Assembly (NCBI RefSeq): GCF_024343615.1
Contig: NZ_RJUB01000156.1
Location: forward strand, 124,001 to 188,000
DNA from: Ferruginibacter sp. HRS2-29
Lineage (GTDB): Bacteria; Bacteroidota; Bacteroidia; Chitinophagales; Chitinophagaceae
Length of the DNA: 64,000 nucleotides
Reading direction: 5' to 3'
The notes under the pieces are model-generated. The model saw nothing but the letters and a program-made list of their open reading frames with translations, had not been told where the DNA came from and ran no database searches. Below, one piece after another: positions 18,579 to 25,102 of the stretch. The position numbers were made by a program, and so were the translations under genes. Every line of letters begins with the position of its first letter. The stretch's first letter is position 1.

Positions 18579-18610
18579 TTTGCATATTAAAAAAACGCCA
18601 TATATCTTTA
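18579..18610 (+). promoter_or_regulatory. Promoter of the four-gene PLD-HNH cluster
   Basis: TTTG (18579-18582), 20 bases, then TATCTTTA (18603-18610), close to the Bacteroidota -33/-7 pattern. It is 21 bases before the ATG at 18631 and separates the cluster from the cbb3 operon, which ends at 18536. Confidence 0.5.
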
Positions 18611-18630: not shown

Positions 18631-20295
18631 ATGCGAACAAGAACTACCGAAAATGGTATTACCATTAATGCTGTCGTGGGCACATCTGCCGTACTTCTCT
18701 CCTTTGACATCGAAAAAGCAGCAACCAAAGAATTACTTGGTTTCTATATCCGAAAGGAGAATATTTCTTCAGGAGAAGCTTATGATGTAACATCGATCAA
18801 ATATTTCAAGGAAATGGTACCGGAGCCGGAAAAGTATGCACGGTATAACACTAAATTTCATCCCTGGCAATCCTTTCTCTGGGAAGACTTCAGTATAGAG
18901 GATAAAAAAGAATATAAATATATCGTTACCCCAGTATTTGGTAAACCTACCTCGCTGCTATATGGCAAGCCTGCAACCCTGAGCATAAAAATACCTGCAC
19001 GGGAAAAAGGCGAACATGAAGTGCATTTCAACCGTGGCGTTGCCGGTAGCCAGGCCTATGCAAAGGAATTTGGTAACCAGCGCCCTGATGCAATGCCTGC
19101 AGTACAACAAAAAAAAGCATTGAAGTGGCTTTCGAAAGGATTGAAGGAAGCCATGCTGGATTTTATTGCTACGGCAAAAGATGAACGCTGGAAACTGCGG
19201 TGTTGTTTTTATGAATTTATTTTCCCGGAAGTGTTACAAGCACTTAAACGTGCAGCCGAAAATGGCGCGGATGTAAAGATCATCTATGACTCCCGCTCAG
19301 AAAAGGACAAGAATGACAAAGCTATAAAAGCGAACAAGGTTCCCCGTAAGCTGCTTATCCGGAGGGAAGCCGATCCGGATTTTTTGCAACACAATAAGTT
19401 CATGGTACTTATTAATAACGACCAACCACAACACAACCGTGTCTGGTTCGGTTCTACGAACATTACGGAAAAAGCGATCTACGGGCATTGTAATGTAGGG
19501 CATATCTTACGCAATAAAGATGTGGCGGCAAACTATCTGCGCTATTGGGAAGCATTGAAAAAAGATCCGGTTGCTGCGATAATGAAAAAAGAAACCGTAG
19601 CCATACAGGAGGATATTACCGAATTACAAAATGGGATGACCCAATTCTTTAGCCCGAGACCTACAACAAAGGCATTGAAACTATATGCAGGGCTTGTGGG
19701 CGCTTCATCTCAACTTGTTTGCGGGATGTTCCCATTCTCTTTTTATGCAGGACTGAAAGAAGCGATCAAGGCAGAAACTGAGCATCTTAAATATATTATC
19801 ATCGATAAAAAAACAAAGAACACCCTGCTCGAATCCAATGATTATGATAATGTGATCGTGTACGCCGGAGTGCTGGAAGATGAACTGTATGGATGGGCAG
19901 CCGAAACAGATAGCGGCGAACTATTTTACAGTGGGGTGAATTTTATTCATAATAAAGTGATACTGATTGACCCACTTAGCGAAGTACCGATAGTGATCAC
20001 CGGCTCAGCCAATTTTTCCAATAACTCCATCAGTAATAATGACGAGAATACGGTGATCATAAAGGGAAATAAACATGTGGCGGATCTTTATTTTACAGAA
20101 TTTGCCAGAATATTCAACCATTATTCTACAAGGCAGGATACCAAAAAGCTGACGAAAGCAAACGAAGCAAATAATTATAACCCGGCCCATCTCGATAAAA
20201 CAAATAAGTGGACACGTTCCTTTTTTAACCCCAACGGGCTCAAATGTAAGCGCCGGCTTATGTTTTCCGACATGCAGGTAGAAGAAACCAACTGA
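18631..20295 (+). CDS. PLD-superfamily protein with an N-terminal beta-sandwich-like domain
   Basis: 554 residues from the ATG at 18631 (an in-frame TTG at 18580 overlaps the promoter). Residues 1 to about 125 look like a fibronectin-type fold (LSFDIEKAATKELLGFYIRK, YKYIVTPVFG). Two phospholipase D halves follow. The first has H254-N-K256 then FMVLIN, without the usual aspartate five residues after the lysine, and FGSTNITEKA. The second has H440-N-K442-x4-D447 and GSANFSNNSISNNDEN, a complete HKD motif. No signal peptide or membrane helix is seen, so it probably acts in the cytoplasm, on nucleic acid or phospholipid. It is the first gene of a cluster that continues with a metallohydrolase and two HNH proteins. 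Confidence 0.85.
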   Translation: MRTRTTENGITINAVVGTSAVLLSFDIEKAATKELLGFYIRKENISSGEAYDVTSIKYFKEMVPEPEKYARYNTKFHPWQSFLWEDFSIEDKKEYKYIVTPVFGKPTSLLYGKPATLSIKIPAREKGEHEVHFNRGVAGSQAYAKEFGNQRPDAMPAVQQKKALKWLSKGLKEAMLDFIATAKDERWKLRCCFYEFIFPEVLQALKRAAENGADVKIIYDSRSEKDKNDKAIKANKVPRKLLIRREADPDFLQHNKFMVLINNDQPQHNRVWFGSTNITEKAIYGHCNVGHILRNKDVAANYLRYWEALKKDPVAAIMKKETVAIQEDITELQNGMTQFFSPRPTTKALKLYAGLVGASSQLVCGMFPFSFYAGLKEAIKAETEHLKYIIIDKKTKNTLLESNDYDNVIVYAGVLEDELYGWAAETDSGELFYSGVNFIHNKVILIDPLSEVPIVITGSANFSNNSISNNDENTVIIKGNKHVADLYFTEFARIFNHYSTRQDTKKLTKANEANNYNPAHLDKTNKWTRSFFNPNGLKCKRRLMFSDMQVEETN

Positions 20296-20330
20296 TAGTT
20301 CCGGATTTTTTAATTTTTTATCTTCCCGAT

Positions 20331-22106
20331 ATGACTGATCAGAATATTCAAGATGATGAACTGCCGATCATTAATTGCCATACGCATATTTTTACCGGCG
20401 ATCATGTGCCCCCTTTTCTGGCTAAAACTTTTATACCCTGGCCTTTTTATTATCTTTTTCCTGTCAACCTGATTGTCGGCATATTCAGGTTATGGTATAA
20501 CCATATTTATACCTGGCAATTCAAGCCGTGGTATGGAAAACTTAGTAATGCACTTTATAGTTTTAGAATGTTCTTCGTACGAAACGGTTTGTTAAGCATC
20601 CTTAGTTTTTTAATAGGCTCTTATATCAGCGTACAGGTATTTTTTATCCTATTCGATTGGCTTTCTTCGGTAATGCCCGCCGCGGGCGGAATAAAAAATT
20701 CTATTGAAGAGTTGCGGCGCTGGCTTGGCAGCAACTGGAACATTTATGTTCCAGAATCCACCGGCCTGAAGCTTTTAATGATAGTATTATTGCTGTTGTT
20801 TTTCAAACCTGGTCGAAACCTCATCTGGTTCCTGGTAAAAAATATCTGGACTTTTTTAGGGGTGTTGCCTGGTTCCGAGACCAAAAAACTTGCAGGCCGT
20901 TATCTTAATATAGGGCGCTATGCATTTTACCGTCAGCAGGGAAAGGTTTTCGGAAGAATCAAAAGCCAGTATCCTCCCAAAACAAAGTTCATTGTTCTTC
21001 CGATGGATATGGAGTTCATGGGTGCGGGAAGATTAAATAAAGATCATTTATATGCCGAACAGATGCGTATGCTGGCAGCGATCAAAAACAATAAAGAAAA
21101 TTCCAATATTATTTTCCCATTCGTTTTTGCTGATCCCCGCAGGATACAAAAAGAAGGTAAAGCGCATTTTGATTATAGTATTGATACCAACGGAAAGATC
21201 AGGCTGAATGATTGTTTCATCAAACGATTTATCGAAGATGAAAAATTCAGCGGGTTCAAAATATATCCTGCACTGGGTTATTTTCCTTTTGATGAATTAT
21301 TGCTTCCTCTATGGAAATATGCAGCAGACAATGCTTTGCCTGTTTTGACACATTGCATCCGGGGAACCATTTATTATCGCGGCCGTAAGAATAAAGCCTG
21401 GGATAAACACCCGGTATTTACCTGGGCGGCGGGAAATTATGTGCCGATGCCGCTTACAGAGATCAGGAACCGTGACTTCATCAATAATTTTACACATCCG
21501 CTCAATTACCTGTGTTTGCTGGAAGAACAATTGCTCAGGAAACTGGTAGCTGCTGCAAAAGATGACCGTATCCGGCAGATGTTTGGATACAAAGACGCCG
21601 ATACCAGGATGGATGCAGACCTTTCGCACCTGAAATTATGTTTTGGACACTTTGGAGGAGATGATGAATGGGATAAATTCTTTGAATCTGATCGTGATAA
21701 CTATAGCAGCCAGCTGGTAAAATATCCGGAAACCGGCATTTCGTTTATGAAAGATGAAAAGGGCAACCCGGCGCCCGGCAAGCTGGAACAAGTATGGAAA
21801 TATGTAGACTGGTATTCCACCATTTGTAGTATGATGCTGCAATATGATCATGTGTATGCAGACCTGAGCTATATCATTCACAACCCTTCCATAGAACCAC
21901 TGCTAAGGCATACATTGTCTAATAAAAAATTACTTAAAAAAGTTTTATTCGGAACAGATTTTTATGTTGTTAGAAATCATAAAACGGAAAAGCATATGCT
22001 GGCCGATGTGCTGGATTATTTGCCACGGCAGGAATTTGATCAGATAGCAAAAGTAAACCCGCGAAATTTCCTTATCAATAAAACGCATACCACAACGCTA
22101 AAATAA
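20331..22106 (+). CDS. Amidohydrolase-family protein with membrane helices inserted after the first metal motif
   Basis: 591 residues. The opening PIINCHTHIF gives H17-x-H19, the first metal-binding motif of amidohydrolase TIM barrels. An insertion then holds about three hydrophobic helices (36-54, 86-110, 145-175). The barrel resumes near residue 215 (KFIVLPMDMEFMG), with GFKIYPALGYFP (possible bridging lysine), VLTHC, LCFGHFGG and a late FGTDFYVVR aspartate motif. This order matches Amidohydro_2-type metal-dependent hydrolases, but a membrane insertion straight after HxH is unusual. Substrate unknown. The gap from the PLD gene is 35 bases and to the next gene six bases, so it is probably co-transcribed with both. 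Confidence 0.75.
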   Translation: MTDQNIQDDELPIINCHTHIFTGDHVPPFLAKTFIPWPFYYLFPVNLIVGIFRLWYNHIYTWQFKPWYGKLSNALYSFRMFFVRNGLLSILSFLIGSYISVQVFFILFDWLSSVMPAAGGIKNSIEELRRWLGSNWNIYVPESTGLKLLMIVLLLLFFKPGRNLIWFLVKNIWTFLGVLPGSETKKLAGRYLNIGRYAFYRQQGKVFGRIKSQYPPKTKFIVLPMDMEFMGAGRLNKDHLYAEQMRMLAAIKNNKENSNIIFPFVFADPRRIQKEGKAHFDYSIDTNGKIRLNDCFIKRFIEDEKFSGFKIYPALGYFPFDELLLPLWKYAADNALPVLTHCIRGTIYYRGRKNKAWDKHPVFTWAAGNYVPMPLTEIRNRDFINNFTHPLNYLCLLEEQLLRKLVAAAKDDRIRQMFGYKDADTRMDADLSHLKLCFGHFGGDDEWDKFFESDRDNYSSQLVKYPETGISFMKDEKGNPAPGKLEQVWKYVDWYSTICSMMLQYDHVYADLSYIIHNPSIEPLLRHTLSNKKLLKKVLFGTDFYVVRNHKTEKHMLADVLDYLPRQEFDQIAKVNPRNFLINKTHTTTLK

Positions 22107-22112
22107 AGCATA

Positions 22113-24275
22113 ATGATCAGGATAAACAGGAAAGAAGCGCCGTCATTCTTTTTTAGCGAAAGGGTGATGAAAGCAAGGGGTGAAATTTTAAAACATCTGG
22201 AAAACCAGGCACGACAGCAACGGCTTTTTTTTGATGTTACCCTGTTGCAAAGTATCGAACGTGACCTTGCTCACACCTTTAATTACAAATGTGCTTACTG
22301 CGAATCAAAACTGGAAATGTCGGGCAATGGGGATATCAGTCACTTTCGCCCAAAGGGCGGCGCAAGAGGATTAAAAAAAGAAGAGTATGCTCCATTGCAT
22401 TACTCGTGGCTGGCATACAGTTGGGAGAACCTGGTATTGAGCTGCACCACCTGCAACGAGAAATACAAAAGAGATTATTTTCCACTCAGTGATGAGAAAG
22501 ACCGGTGTATGATAGGGGCTACGGGTAGTCTCCTGAACAATGAAGGGGCTTTACTGATTGACCCCTGCCTCGATAACCCTGAAGAACATCTGGAGTTTGA
22601 TGAGGAAAGCGGGTTTGTACGGGAGCTTACTAAAAAAGGAAAAGTGACCATTGAAATCCTTGGCCTTAACCGAAGTGATCTTGTAGAAAAGAGGATGCAG
22701 GCAGCTAAGCATTTTTTAGAAAGGTTGCAATCATTCAGGCAAGAGGCAGGATACAGATTTATGGTAAATGATCCAACCCGGCTACTCGGGTATGTAAATG
22801 AACTTTTTTCAGACAGTCCACCGCAGGAATACAGTGCTGTATTGAGGGTGACATTTAACAGCTGGCATGAAATTAATGGGGACATCTGGAAGAGCGTGCA
22901 TTCAGCAGATACATTTGACTCAGGTAATATTGATTTTAAAAAAAGCGTAAATCCATTAAAACATTTTCCCGAAATATCAACAATCACAGAACAACTGAAA
23001 GAAATCAAACGATTTTCCATCAGATCGATAGAGATCGAAAACTTTAAGTCTATCGAAAAGCTCTCGCTGGAAGTGATGGAACACGATAGTTCAGGAGAAA
23101 AAGAGTCGTGGTTGTTGCTGCTGGGAGACAATGGTATCGGTAAAAGTTCAATCCTGCAAGCTATCACGTTGGCACTGGCCGGAGCAAAGAAGCTGGAAGA
23201 AATGCACCTTGAGGCAGAAGATTATCTCAAAAGAGGCGAAACTTCGGGTAAAGTGATCGTTAGAAGTGATCAGGATAACGAGATAGGTTTATACTTTGAT
23301 GCAAATGGATTTACCTCTTCAATTGCAGAACCTCCTGCATTTATCCTGGCTTATGGGTCTACGCGGTTGCTGCCCAAAGGCAACATTAAGGAACAAGAGC
23401 AGAAGGGTCTTTATCTGAACATCGACAATCTTTTTGATTATAGTATTGCGTTGACAGACCCGGGCAAATGGATGTCGGGTGTTGATCCTGTGGAGTTCAA
23501 TGAGCGGGTCATTCCGGCTTTTTATGATGTGCTGGCGCTGAAAGGAGAAGACAGGATATATCTTGATCAGGGAAATATCAAGATAAAACAATATGGCGAT
23601 GATCACGAACTTGAAAATAGCAGTGATGGCTATAAAGCAGTTGTAGCAATGGTTGCAGATATGATGAAAACACTTTCGGCAGACTCTGCCAGTTATCATA
23701 ATTCCTATGGGATTGTGTTGATTGATGAGATTGGAACACATCTGCACCCAAGGTGGCGGTTGAAAATTGTAAATGCATTGAGAAAGGCCTTTCCCAAATT
23801 ACAGTTTATTGTTACCACACATGAGCCATTGTGCCTGCGTGGCCTGGCCCATGGCGAAGTGAATGTGCTGATGCGGGATGCTCAAAACCAGGTTCGGGTG
23901 TTAAATAAGTCGGTGTTGCCAGACCATAGCCTGATGAGGATAGAAGAACTGCTGACATCAGATCTGTTTGGATTGATAAATGTGATGGATGAAGCAACAG
24001 AAAAAAAGTACGAAGAATATTATGCTTTACTCAGTAAAACAGAAGAAGATAAAACGGAGGAAGATAAAATAATGATCGATGATTTTTCTGCTTCACTTGC
24101 TGAAAAAGAATTGTTGGGCACTTCTCCGGTAGTGCAGGGTATGTTTAAACTTTTTAACCAGGAATATGCACAAAAACTACGTGATGAGGGTTTCAAGACA
24201 AAGGCTGACCTCAAGGAAGAAACGATAAAAACTGTACAGAATATGGTGCAGAATAAAAAAGTCGATTGGTTATGA
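22113..24275 (+). CDS. HNH nuclease fused to AAA (Septu/OLD-like) ATPase
   Basis: 720 residues. The N-terminal HNH domain shows C60-x2-C63, DISHFRPKG (H77), WENLVLSC with N106, and C111-x2-C114-N115, followed by FPLSDE; this is the TIGR02646/PtuB pattern. Residues ~300-610 form an SMC/RecF-type ATPase: IEIENFKSIEKLSL, Walker A GDNGIGKSS (338-346), signature-like SSDGYKAVVAMVADMM (503-518), Walker B IVLIDEIG (534-541) and a switch histidine in TTHEP (H570). In Septu, ATPase (PtuA) and HNH (PtuB) are separate; here they are joined, and a second HNH gene follows, overlapping as ATGA. An antiphage or nucleic-acid-sensing role is inferred. Confidence 0.88.
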   Translation: MIRINRKEAPSFFFSERVMKARGEILKHLENQARQQRLFFDVTLLQSIERDLAHTFNYKCAYCESKLEMSGNGDISHFRPKGGARGLKKEEYAPLHYSWLAYSWENLVLSCTTCNEKYKRDYFPLSDEKDRCMIGATGSLLNNEGALLIDPCLDNPEEHLEFDEESGFVRELTKKGKVTIEILGLNRSDLVEKRMQAAKHFLERLQSFRQEAGYRFMVNDPTRLLGYVNELFSDSPPQEYSAVLRVTFNSWHEINGDIWKSVHSADTFDSGNIDFKKSVNPLKHFPEISTITEQLKEIKRFSIRSIEIENFKSIEKLSLEVMEHDSSGEKESWLLLLGDNGIGKSSILQAITLALAGAKKLEEMHLEAEDYLKRGETSGKVIVRSDQDNEIGLYFDANGFTSSIAEPPAFILAYGSTRLLPKGNIKEQEQKGLYLNIDNLFDYSIALTDPGKWMSGVDPVEFNERVIPAFYDVLALKGEDRIYLDQGNIKIKQYGDDHELENSSDGYKAVVAMVADMMKTLSADSASYHNSYGIVLIDEIGTHLHPRWRLKIVNALRKAFPKLQFIVTTHEPLCLRGLAHGEVNVLMRDAQNQVRVLNKSVLPDHSLMRIEELLTSDLFGLINVMDEATEKKYEEYYALLSKTEEDKTEEDKIMIDDFSASLAEKELLGTSPVVQGMFKLFNQEYAQKLRDEGFKTKADLKEETIKTVQNMVQNKKVDWL

Positions 24276-25102
24276 TACATATAAACAAACCTGCTGCCCC
24301 ACCATGGCTCAACGAACTTGAAGGGAAATGGATAAAGGAGACGAATAAAGCCATAGCACATTATAACGGTAATGCCACCGTAAAAGCGTTTGAATTCAAT
24401 GCTTACAGCGATACAAAATTAAAGGAGGCGCTTAAAGAAGTCTTTTCAAAATGTGCATATTGCGAAAGTATTTATGGGGCTGTATCTGATGGTGATATCG
24501 AGCATTTTCGCCCGAAAGGAAGAGTAATGGAAAAGAAACCCGTAAACCCAGGGTATTATTGGCTTGCAAATGACTGGGATAATTTGTTATTGTCTTGTCA
24601 GCATTGTAACCAAAACAGGCAACATAAACTTTATGACGAAACAGTTCTGAAGAATTACGGTAAGGCGGATCAGTTCCCATTATCCGATGAAAATATGCGG
24701 GTGCATGCACACACGCATCCACTGACGGAAGAGGAAAAACACCGGCTTTTGATAAATCCATGTATAGAGGATCCTGAAAAGCATTTTAAGTATGAAAAAA
24801 AGGAAGGAGTGATTCTATCCGATACGGAAATGGGAAAAAAATCAATCGAAGTATATGCTTTGAAACGCCCGCTTCTTGTACAGCAAAGAAAAAAAATACT
24901 GATCCTGCTTTTTTCACAAATGTCCAGGGTATTGAGGGAGTTGGAGAGACTAAATAAAGAGAACACAACCGGGCAACAGCAAATATTCGATGATGAATTT
25001 GATCAACTTTTGACTTTTGGCGAAAAAGAAGCGCCCTATGCGGGAATGAGCCGGTATTTTATAAAAGAATTTTTGTTGGTAAATAACCTAAAAAAACCCT
25101 GA
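24272..25102 (+). CDS. Stand-alone HNH nuclease of TIGR02646/PtuB type
   Basis: 276 residues from the ATG at 24272, which overlaps the preceding TGA (ATGA); an in-frame TTG at 24266 is a poorer choice. The HNH core is C61-x2-C64, DIEHFRPKG (H78), DWDNLLLSC (N104), C109-x2-C112-N113 and FPLSDE, nearly the same series as in the N-terminus of the upstream fusion protein, so the two probably arose by duplication. A helical C-terminal half (about 165-276) has no recognised motif. It is likely the effector nuclease regulated by the ATPase, as PtuB is by PtuA. It is the last gene of the cluster. Confidence 0.87.
   Translation: MIHINKPAAPPWLNELEGKWIKETNKAIAHYNGNATVKAFEFNAYSDTKLKEALKEVFSKCAYCESIYGAVSDGDIEHFRPKGRVMEKKPVNPGYYWLANDWDNLLLSCQHCNQNRQHKLYDETVLKNYGKADQFPLSDENMRVHAHTHPLTEEEKHRLLINPCIEDPEKHFKYEKKEGVILSDTEMGKKSIEVYALKRPLLVQQRKKILILLFSQMSRVLRELERLNKENTTGQQQIFDDEFDQLLTFGEKEAPYAGMSRYFIKEFLLVNNLKKP

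What the first reader, a model, noticed from the sequence alone, without database searches (positions are those of the whole stretch)
18631..25102. Four-gene cluster: PLD protein, membrane-inserted amidohydrolase, HNH-AAA fusion and second HNH nuclease
The genes are packed (gaps 35 and 6 bases, then an ATGA overlap), share one strand and follow their own promoter-like sequence. The last two resemble the Septu antiphage pair (PtuA ATPase, PtuB HNH of TIGR02646 type). The first two add a PLD-family enzyme and a metal-dependent hydrolase with membrane helices. I do not know of a described defence system with this set. A layered design is possible: ATPase-HNH senses or cuts foreign DNA while the PLD and hydrolase act on lipid or nucleotide at the membrane. 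The function is inference; domains and order are read from the sequence.
Basis: partly seen in the sequence, partly recalled or inferred. Interest (0 to 1): 0.8.

Follow-up and report, generated by a model that had tools for sequence, protein, structure and literature searches.

The report
Septu antiphage pair with membrane amidohydrolase
A bacterial gene cluster joins a known type of antivirus nuclease pair to an undescribed membrane-anchored enzyme, and relatives of that enzyme sit beside several different immune-type nuclease and protease genes in other bacteria, so it may be a shared part of bacterial immunity that has gone unnoticed.

Summary
In detail: four co-directional genes (gaps 35 and 6 bases, then an ATGA overlap). 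The last two are Septu: PtuA with a fused HNH (already modelled by PADLOC) and PtuB. Gene 1 is a nuclease-like PLD protein. Gene 2 (AMH) is an ACMSD-fold amidohydrolase with a transmembrane hairpin and a conserved metal site.

The four-gene order was not seen in any other locus opened. PLD is the loose part: none of 15 PLD loci from the order held AMH or Septu; one PLD-MBL-AMH operon exists. AMH with Septu recurs: 11 of 80 AMH loci, 10 adjacent and co-directional. AMH also lies near caspase plus MBL-nuclease genes (9), HExxH plus MBL (9, plus one HExxH alone) and other conflict genes: 38 of 80. The modules with models were found in 34 of 80 AMH loci and in 0 of 12 loci of distant amidohydrolases.

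Best reading: a Septu variant with a membrane-tethered hydrolase, probably a regulator that can be coupled to interchangeable nuclease effectors. AMH's role is inferred. 42 of 80 loci show no such partner, and most HNH-PtuA loci lack AMH. My paper searches found no description of this enzyme in defence.

The parts
18631..20295 (+). PLD-family protein, 554 aa, two HKD motifs (H254/K256; H440/K442/D447), nuclease-like; loosely attached partner
   Evidence: without AMH/Septu in 15 of 15 PLD loci opened in the order; PLD-MBL-AMH operon once elsewhere (L083)
20331..22106 (+). AMH: membrane-anchored ACMSD-fold amidohydrolase, 591 aa; presumed metal-site residues H17, H19, H341, H440, D543 plus K310
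   Evidence: 77-78 of 78 rows conserved; AF2 pLDDT 89.6; Foldseek best ACMSD 4ifk, E 1.8e-6
20586..20864 (+). predicted transmembrane hairpin (residues about 86-178) inserted between the HxH strand and the rest of the barrel
22113..24275 (+). PtuA with N-terminal HNH domain (about residues 1-260) and ABC-type ATPase (about 300-660)
   Evidence: PADLOC PtuA1 PDLC00292 E 7.7e-188; nearest solved chains are retron/Septu-type PtuA
24272..25102 (+). PtuB, TIGR02646-like HNH endonuclease, 276 aa; conserved H78 and N104
   Evidence: ATGA overlap with PtuA
18579..18609 (+). promoter-like TTTG-N20-TATCTTT upstream of the PLD ATG
   Evidence: (16 such sites in the window, 10.07 expected): weak

Best explanation
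A Septu-family antiphage locus of Bacteroidota in which the PtuA-PtuB effector pair is coupled to a membrane-anchored amidohydrolase (AMH) with an intact active site. PtuA (ABC-type ATPase with a fused HNH) and PtuB (HNH) are expected to assemble and, on infection, cleave nucleic acid (tRNA in a studied relative), stopping phage growth. AMH, held at the inner membrane by a helical hairpin with its barrel probably on the cytoplasmic side, most likely controls the effector: it turns over a small molecule or senses a change at the membrane and so sets when PtuAB is released. The same enzyme family is joined to other effector cassettes (caspase + gated-type MBL nuclease, HExxH protein + MBL and others). 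The PLD protein is an optional extra nuclease. Shown: gene identities, recurrence, conserved active sites, partner exchange on trees. Inferred: defence, regulation, direction of control, substrate, membrane topology.
For: PADLOC full-length PtuA1 (E 7.7e-188) and PtuB1 (E 7e-85) hits. Septu within 4 genes of AMH in 11 of 80 AMH loci; 10 adjacent and co-directional, 8 with AMH upstream and 2 (L121, L123) downstream. Recurrence is not one inheritance: SEPTU needs at least 3 changes on the AMH tree; AMH-linked PtuA are one side of a branch in 0% of 200 bootstrap trees; L101 pairs an AMH nearest L098/L099/L100 with a PtuA nearest L121/L123. 38 of 80 AMH loci carry a conflict-type partner (recount); one caspase-linked MBL matches the PADLOC LmuA, RTasMBL and Avs1a models (E 1e-86, 6e-57, 2e-48), a family whose activation by proteases is published (PMC12799240). 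Modules with models occur in 34 of 80 AMH loci and in 0 of 12 distant amidohydrolase loci. Active-site residues kept in 77-78 of 78 AMH. None of 10 genus relatives opened has the cluster after the conserved cco genes.
Against: 42 of 80 AMH loci show no conflict-type partner by these tests (only chosen neighbours were scanned), so AMH may have a life of its own. HNH-PtuA also occurs without it: of 12 genomes with HNH-PtuA found have AMH beside it (4 have a methylase + HerA-like set, 4 nothing obvious); in 12 plasmid loci opened of 14 hits none has this AMH family. On the PtuA tree the well-supported branches alone force only one change. No substrate, no tested phage defence, no AMH-PtuAB contact shown.
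Confidence: 0.6

Rival explanations
1. AMH is a second toxic effector: once released it destroys a metabolite or lipid head group at the membrane in parallel with PtuAB, so that two hits stop the phage.
For: The active site is conserved; AMH loci can hold several hydrolases together (patatin, DUF2779 and EEP genes after AMH in L121); R. etli L207 has an EEP nuclease, a distant amidohydrolase and Septu in a row.
Against: AMH is the constant part while nucleases and proteases change around it, which suits a control part better than one more effector (inference); a free-standing toxic hydrolase would not be expected without partner in so many loci.
Confidence: 0.25
2. AMH is an ordinary Bacteroidota membrane enzyme; defence modules settle beside it because its locus is a favoured landing site.
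For: 42 of 80 loci show no conflict-type partner; L045 has Septu on the other strand, past two intervening genes.
Against: In the 10 adjacent Septu loci AMH and Septu are separated by 2-34 bases or overlap, on either side of AMH; all 9 caspase hits lie within 3 and all 10 HExxH hits within 4 genes of AMH although 814 of 1276 neighbouring ORFs lie beyond 3 (the models were made from genes within 5, so partly circular); distant amidohydrolases show none of the modelled modules (0 of 12).
Confidence: 0.2
3. The four genes as such form one four-component system, the PLD nuclease included.
For: Same strand, 35-base gap; PLD of the same family heads a PLD-MBL-AMH operon in Confluentibacter (L083); a PLD-family gene lies next to PtuB, on the other strand, on a Rhizobium plasmid (L209).
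Against: None of the 15 PLD loci opened in the order (some cut short by contig ends) has AMH or Septu nearby; the four-gene order was seen only here.
Confidence: 0.3
4. PLD and AMH are parts or cargo of interbacterial or injection-system weaponry rather than antiphage defence.
For: Single cases near tail-sheath-like (L068, by eye), annotated VgrG (L213) or tail-collar-like (L166, by eye) genes.
Against: Few among the loci opened; AMH has a predicted membrane hairpin; Septu and MBL-nuclease partners belong to antiphage families.
Confidence: 0.08

Closest known systems
Septu (PtuAB; Septu type I)
   Same: PtuA ATPase followed by PtuB HNH, overlapping genes, full-length PADLOC hits for both.
   Different: PtuA carries its own N-terminal HNH (known to PADLOC), and a membrane amidohydrolase is joined upstream; the PADLOC paper's Septu passages name no such component, and searches found none.
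Septu type II / retron I-A (Ec78, Eco7)
   Same: Same PtuAB effector pair coupled to an extra gene (there a reverse transcriptase; passages read).
   Different: No reverse transcriptase beside the window cluster; the extra gene is a hydrolase. HNH-PtuA with an RT nearby does occur on plasmids (L178, L180).
Canu and other nuclease-protease modules (Tuck et al. 2025, PMC12799240)
   Same: AMH relatives sit in caspase-CL7-MBL gene sets of canu-like make-up (9 of 80), the MBL of one tested (L057) matching LmuA/RTasMBL/Avs1a models.
   Different: The window cluster has no caspase or MBL; the paper holds no occurrence of 'amidohydrolase'. CL7 was not compared with CanB.
ACMSD / amidohydrolase-2 decarboxylases and hydrolases
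   Same: Barrel fold and metal-site residues (Foldseek rank 1, E 1.8e-6).
   Different: Predicted transmembrane hairpin inserted after the first strand; at most 16% identity to the 50 structures listed; no PDB sequence match at E <= 1.

Membership tests
Septu | PtuA: ABC-type ATPase with Walker motifs | tested here: met
   PADLOC PDLC00292 E 7.7e-188 over 1-716; GDNGIGKSS and VLIDEIG present
Septu | PtuB: TIGR02646-type HNH endonuclease with conserved H and N | tested here: met
   PADLOC PDLC00319 E 7e-85; H78 and N104 invariant in 12 of 12 PtuB rows, taken by position as the H and N of the HNH motif; NCBIfam TIGR02646 only 39.4 bits against a cut-off of 52.15
Septu | ptuA and ptuB adjacent, same strand | tested here: met
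   ATGA overlap
Septu | protects from phage | not testable with these tools
   needs plaque assays
Septu type II / retron I-A | reverse transcriptase beside ptuAB | tested here: not met
   the two flanking genes scanned are a DsbD_2 family protein and a peptidyl-prolyl isomerase, and none of the four genes is an RT
Canu / gated nuclease-protease pair | protease plus MBL nuclease genes | tested here: not met
   absent from the window cluster and its two flanking genes; present beside AMH in other loci
DISARM (DrmC) | PLD protein that reaches the DrmC family cut-off | tested here: not met
   36.2 bits against a cut-off of 133
Amidohydrolase superfamily (Amidohydro_2) | TIM-like barrel with HxH, two further His and Asp metal site | tested here: met
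   the ligand set is recalled for this superfamily; Pfam score 25 against a cut-off of 26.4

The most novel reading that the evidence does not exclude
AMH is the common core of an undescribed class of Bacteroidota immune systems: a membrane-tethered amidohydrolase that senses or signals infection through a small molecule and drives exchangeable effector cassettes (PtuAB, caspase or HExxH protease with a gated MBL nuclease, trypsin-nuclease, CHAT-STAND, SIR2, PLD).
Probability: 0.4. Interest if true: 0.88.

Novelty: new variant of a known kind. Interest (0 to 1): 0.68.

Why it matters
What triggers Septu outside its retron form is, as far as I know, open. A recurrent enzyme with a conserved active site, predicted to sit in the membrane and encoded next to PtuAB, gives a direct handle: remove it, break its metal site, and ask whether PtuAB fires wrongly or not at all. 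If the same enzyme also controls caspase-nuclease and protease-nuclease pairs, it would point to a shared small-molecule or membrane signal behind several nuclease-based defences, and give a marker gene for finding more of them.

Tried and rejected
Rejected: PLD as DISARM DrmC (below cut-off); PLD as lipase (nearest solved structures are Nuc, mitochondrial cardiolipin hydrolases, NucT and PLD3, though the list includes one phospholipase, 7e0m); the HNH-AAA fusion as novel (PADLOC holds it); AMH as a phage or plasmid gene (no match in viral contigs, plasmids or phages); the four-gene order as a recurrent unit.

Led nowhere: AlphaFold2 of the PLD (mean pLDDT 36, two sequences; not used). Empty-site test: the genus members share the cco genes at low identity and the PPIase is not beside them there, so it shows absence of the cluster in the 10 loci opened (of 25 genomes with a match, 40 searched), not an insertion point. 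The reverse frequency is a minimum, because the genome search scored only 1-3 candidates per genome for PtuA. Tree rows dropped: L055 (ORF of 911 aa), L067 (AMH in two ORFs) and L072 (short), so 77 of 80 loci plus the window. Pfam and PADLOC scans covered chosen neighbours only, not every neighbour of all 80 loci; weak or opposite-strand cases such as L081 (M19, under cut-off), L114 (MBL) and L122 (DUF2779-type cluster) were not counted in the 38. The module HMMs come from genes within 5 of AMH, so one search is partly circular; one search used models of the same clusters on other loci, but single-case partners (trypsin, SIR2, CHAT and others) had no model there. Two plasmid PtuA hits (H10, H11) were not opened. 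Papers with 'amidohydrolase' in the listings were checked in part: PMC11672841, PMC11037411 and PMC12707154 use the word for other things; PMC10638138 and PMC12724294 were not opened.

Full report
OBSERVATION. The PLD could start at a TTG at 18580, but most aligned relatives start at the residue coded by the ATG at 18631. The cluster follows genes of a cco (cbb3 oxidase) type and precedes a peptidyl-prolyl isomerase. In 10 genus relatives whose cco-type region I opened (of 25 with a match among 40 searched), the four genes are absent. The window's genome is 5.07 Mb; that it is Bacteroidota is inferred from its relatives.

IDENTITIES. PtuA: full-length PADLOC PtuA1 match (PDLC00292, E 7.7e-188, residues 1-716), so the HNH-ATPase fusion is an architecture PADLOC already models; PtuB: PDLC00319, E 7e-85. 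Their best-scoring solved relatives are PtuA/PtuB-type chains of retron and Septu systems. PtuB's H78 and N104 are invariant in 12 of 12 aligned PtuB, whereas the matching His in the HNH fused to PtuA is replaced in 4 of 10 (L048 N, L098 and L100 L, L123 R; kept in the window), so in part of the family the fused copy may be structural. PLD: two HKD motifs, the first without its Asp; nearest solved protein the endonuclease Nuc (1byr, E 1.7e-16), then mitochondrial cardiolipin hydrolase, NucT, a phospholipase and PLD3. AMH: no PDB sequence match; AlphaFold2 on 53 sequences gives pLDDT 89.6, pTM 0.88, and Foldseek ranks ACMSD and dihydroxybenzoate decarboxylases first (best E 1.8e-6, TM-score about 0.5 by target). 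Two hydrophobic stretches (about 86-114 and 144-178) form a hairpin just after the HxH strand. Lys/Arg-rich stretches flank it, which by the positive-inside rule (recalled) puts the barrel in the cytoplasm. H17, H19, H341, H440, D543 and K310 are kept in 77-78 of 78 members.

RECURRENCE OF AMH WITH SEPTU. In 298 genomes of the order, full-length AMH relatives occur in four (window, G171, G269, G203); two of these carry Septu beside it, and those are the only two genomes in which HNH-PtuA reached E 1e-40. A pattern-seeded scan of the 84,980 species genomes kept the best 80 of 121 AMH relatives, all Bacteroidota by title. Septu lies within 4 genes in 11 of 80: L045, L048, L098, L099, L100, L101, L111, L112, L117, L121, L123; 10 are adjacent and co-directional (2-34 bases apart or overlapping), L045 is on the other strand. 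Nine carry HNH-PtuA, L045 and L117 plain PtuA. AMH precedes PtuA in 8 and follows PtuB in 2. On the AMH tree (77 loci plus window) the Septu label needs at least 3 changes. On a PtuA tree of 24 rows AMH-linked PtuA need 2 changes and are one group in 0% of 200 bootstrap trees, though the well-supported branches alone force only 1 and several rows are long. AMH and PtuA identities correlate over 10 pairs (r 0.59, 0 of 5000 permutations as high), yet L101 combines an AMH close to L098/L099 (57-58%) with a PtuA close to L121/L123 (51-53%). So pairs are inherited together and have also been re-made.

OTHER PARTNERS OF AMH. Clustering of neighbours and Pfam/PADLOC scans of chosen members show: caspase + CL7 + MBL in 9 loci; HExxH protein + MBL in 9 and HExxH alone in one (L092); CL28 + MBL in 2 (L061, L074); PLD + MBL in L083; trypsin-Endonuclease_NS fusion in L064; CHAT + nSTAND1 in L069; SIR2 + EAD11 in L067; EEP nuclease in L116; type I restriction-modification in L109. 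With Septu that is 38 of 80 loci (recount); 42 have none of these by my tests, but not every neighbour was scanned. HExxH is my reading of the sequence; Pfam gave no hit. In L087 the HExxH-MBL pair is on the opposite strand; in L120 it is 3-4 genes away. The L057 MBL matches PADLOC LmuA (E 1e-86), RTasMBL (6e-57) and Avs1a (2e-48) models; the L080 and L083 MBLs match LmuA less strongly (3e-19, 7e-8). Tuck et al. 2025 (PMC12799240; I read parts 1 and 2 of 6 and searched the rest for terms) show that MBL pro-nucleases are activated by partner proteases in Hachiman and AVAST and by a caspase in canu. Sister AMHs have different partners (L082 caspase-MBL, L084 HExxH-MBL, support 99). Control: 12 loci of distant amidohydrolases from the same order carry none of the modelled module families, against 34 of 80 AMH loci that hold Septu, caspase, HExxH, CL28-MBL or PLD-MBL sets. 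Distances: all 9 caspase hits lie within 3 genes and all 10 HExxH hits within 4, though 814 of 1276 neighbouring ORFs lie beyond 3; the models were built from genes within 5, so this is partly circular.

THE REVERSE QUESTION. HNH-PtuA does not need AMH. In three genome samples (298 of the order, 395 of the phylum, 397 of a Flavobacterium-type family, called Flavobacteriaceae here because its members match named Flavobacteriaceae loci) 12 distinct genomes hold it: AMH beside it in 4 (window, G171, G935, G1068), a methylase + HerA-like + about 446-aa gene set in 4 (G316, G350, G756, G816; Pfam run on the G350 set only), nothing obvious in 4 (G751, G876, G891, G1044). The scans scored few candidates per genome, so these are minima. 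On plasmids, 12 of 14 PtuA hits were opened: none has this AMH family, two lie near a reverse transcriptase (L178, L180), one follows an EEP nuclease and a distant amidohydrolase with a lipoprotein-like leader (L207), one stands beside HExxH + MBL genes and a PLD-family gene (L209, its PtuA in two overlapping ORFs).

PLD. 85 of 298 order genomes match the PLD at E 0.001, mostly partial; 15 loci were opened and none holds AMH, Septu or the other modelled modules, some being cut short by contig ends. Of 77 plasmid records with a match, 5 were opened; one (L214, R. leguminosarum) has S1/P1 nuclease, DNA/RNA endonuclease and CHAT genes downstream. The PLD-AMH link rests on the window and L083. It is a plausible optional nuclease, not a fixed component.

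MECHANISM. Shown: identities, conserved active sites, recurrent tight linkage, partner exchange. From the literature: a Septu system inhibits phage by cleaving tRNA-Tyr and needs both the ATPase and HNH motifs (PMC13096335, abstract start, passages, which also state tRNA-Tyr cleavage by retron-Eco7; of PMC11555353 I saw only the start of the abstract); a reverse transcriptase precedes ptuAB in Septu type II (PMC8565338, passages read). Inferred: AMH takes the control position, as the constant partner among changing nucleases; it may make or remove a small ligand, or report on the membrane. A second-effector role is the main rival.

KNOWN OR NOT. Searches for amidohydrolase with Septu, PtuA, conflict-system or antiphage terms listed no paper that I could tie to this enzyme in defence (one search listed 15 of 73, apparently about septa; three papers checked by passage use the word otherwise, two were not opened); PLD with PtuA and 'defense system' gave none. 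The library holds open-licence papers only, so absence there is weak evidence. AMH matched no PADLOC (2023) and no NCBIfam model at E <= 1. I rate it a new variant of a known kind (Septu with an amidohydrolase); the shared-core reading is the bolder case.

Noticed in passing
L174:4020-11489, L175:4131-11600, L201:6275-13743, L202:3377-10840: Four Flavobacteriaceae-type loci with a conserved order DNA methylase - HerA-like (DUF87) - about 446-aa protein - HNH-PtuA - PtuB (Pfam on L175 only): another Septu combination.
   Followed up: partly
PtuA of L048, L098, L100, L123: The presumed catalytic His of the HNH fused to PtuA is lost in 4 of 10 sequences while PtuB keeps it in 12 of 12.
   Followed up: partly
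L209:397-9402: Rhizobium ruizarguesonis plasmid: HExxH protein, MBL, PtuA (in two overlapping ORFs), PtuB and a PLD-family gene side by side.
   Followed up: partly
L207:1728-8864: Rhizobium etli plasmid: EEP nuclease, amidohydrolase with a lipoprotein-like leader, HNH-PtuA, PtuB in a row.
   Followed up: partly
L214:6001-13686: R. leguminosarum plasmid: PLD of the window's family followed by S1/P1 nuclease, DNA/RNA endonuclease and CHAT genes.
   Followed up: no
L080:6420-8465, L057:7365-8855, L117:592-2313, L061:12596-15055: Protein families CL4 (HExxH by eye), CL7, CL17 and CL28 recur beside AMH and have no Pfam match.
   Followed up: no
L067:7597-8742: SIR2-EAD11 gene directly before an AMH that is split over two ORFs.
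   Followed up: no
L121:9971-18491 and L200:3-8957: Septu-AMH operon apparently continued by DUF2779 and EEP-nuclease genes, plus a patatin gene in L121.
   Followed up: partly
L180:4340-5860 and L091:15242-16588: An alpha/beta-hydrolase-like protein (by eye) beside a plasmid Septu is 32% identical to a gene next to an AMH-HExxH-MBL operon.
   Followed up: no
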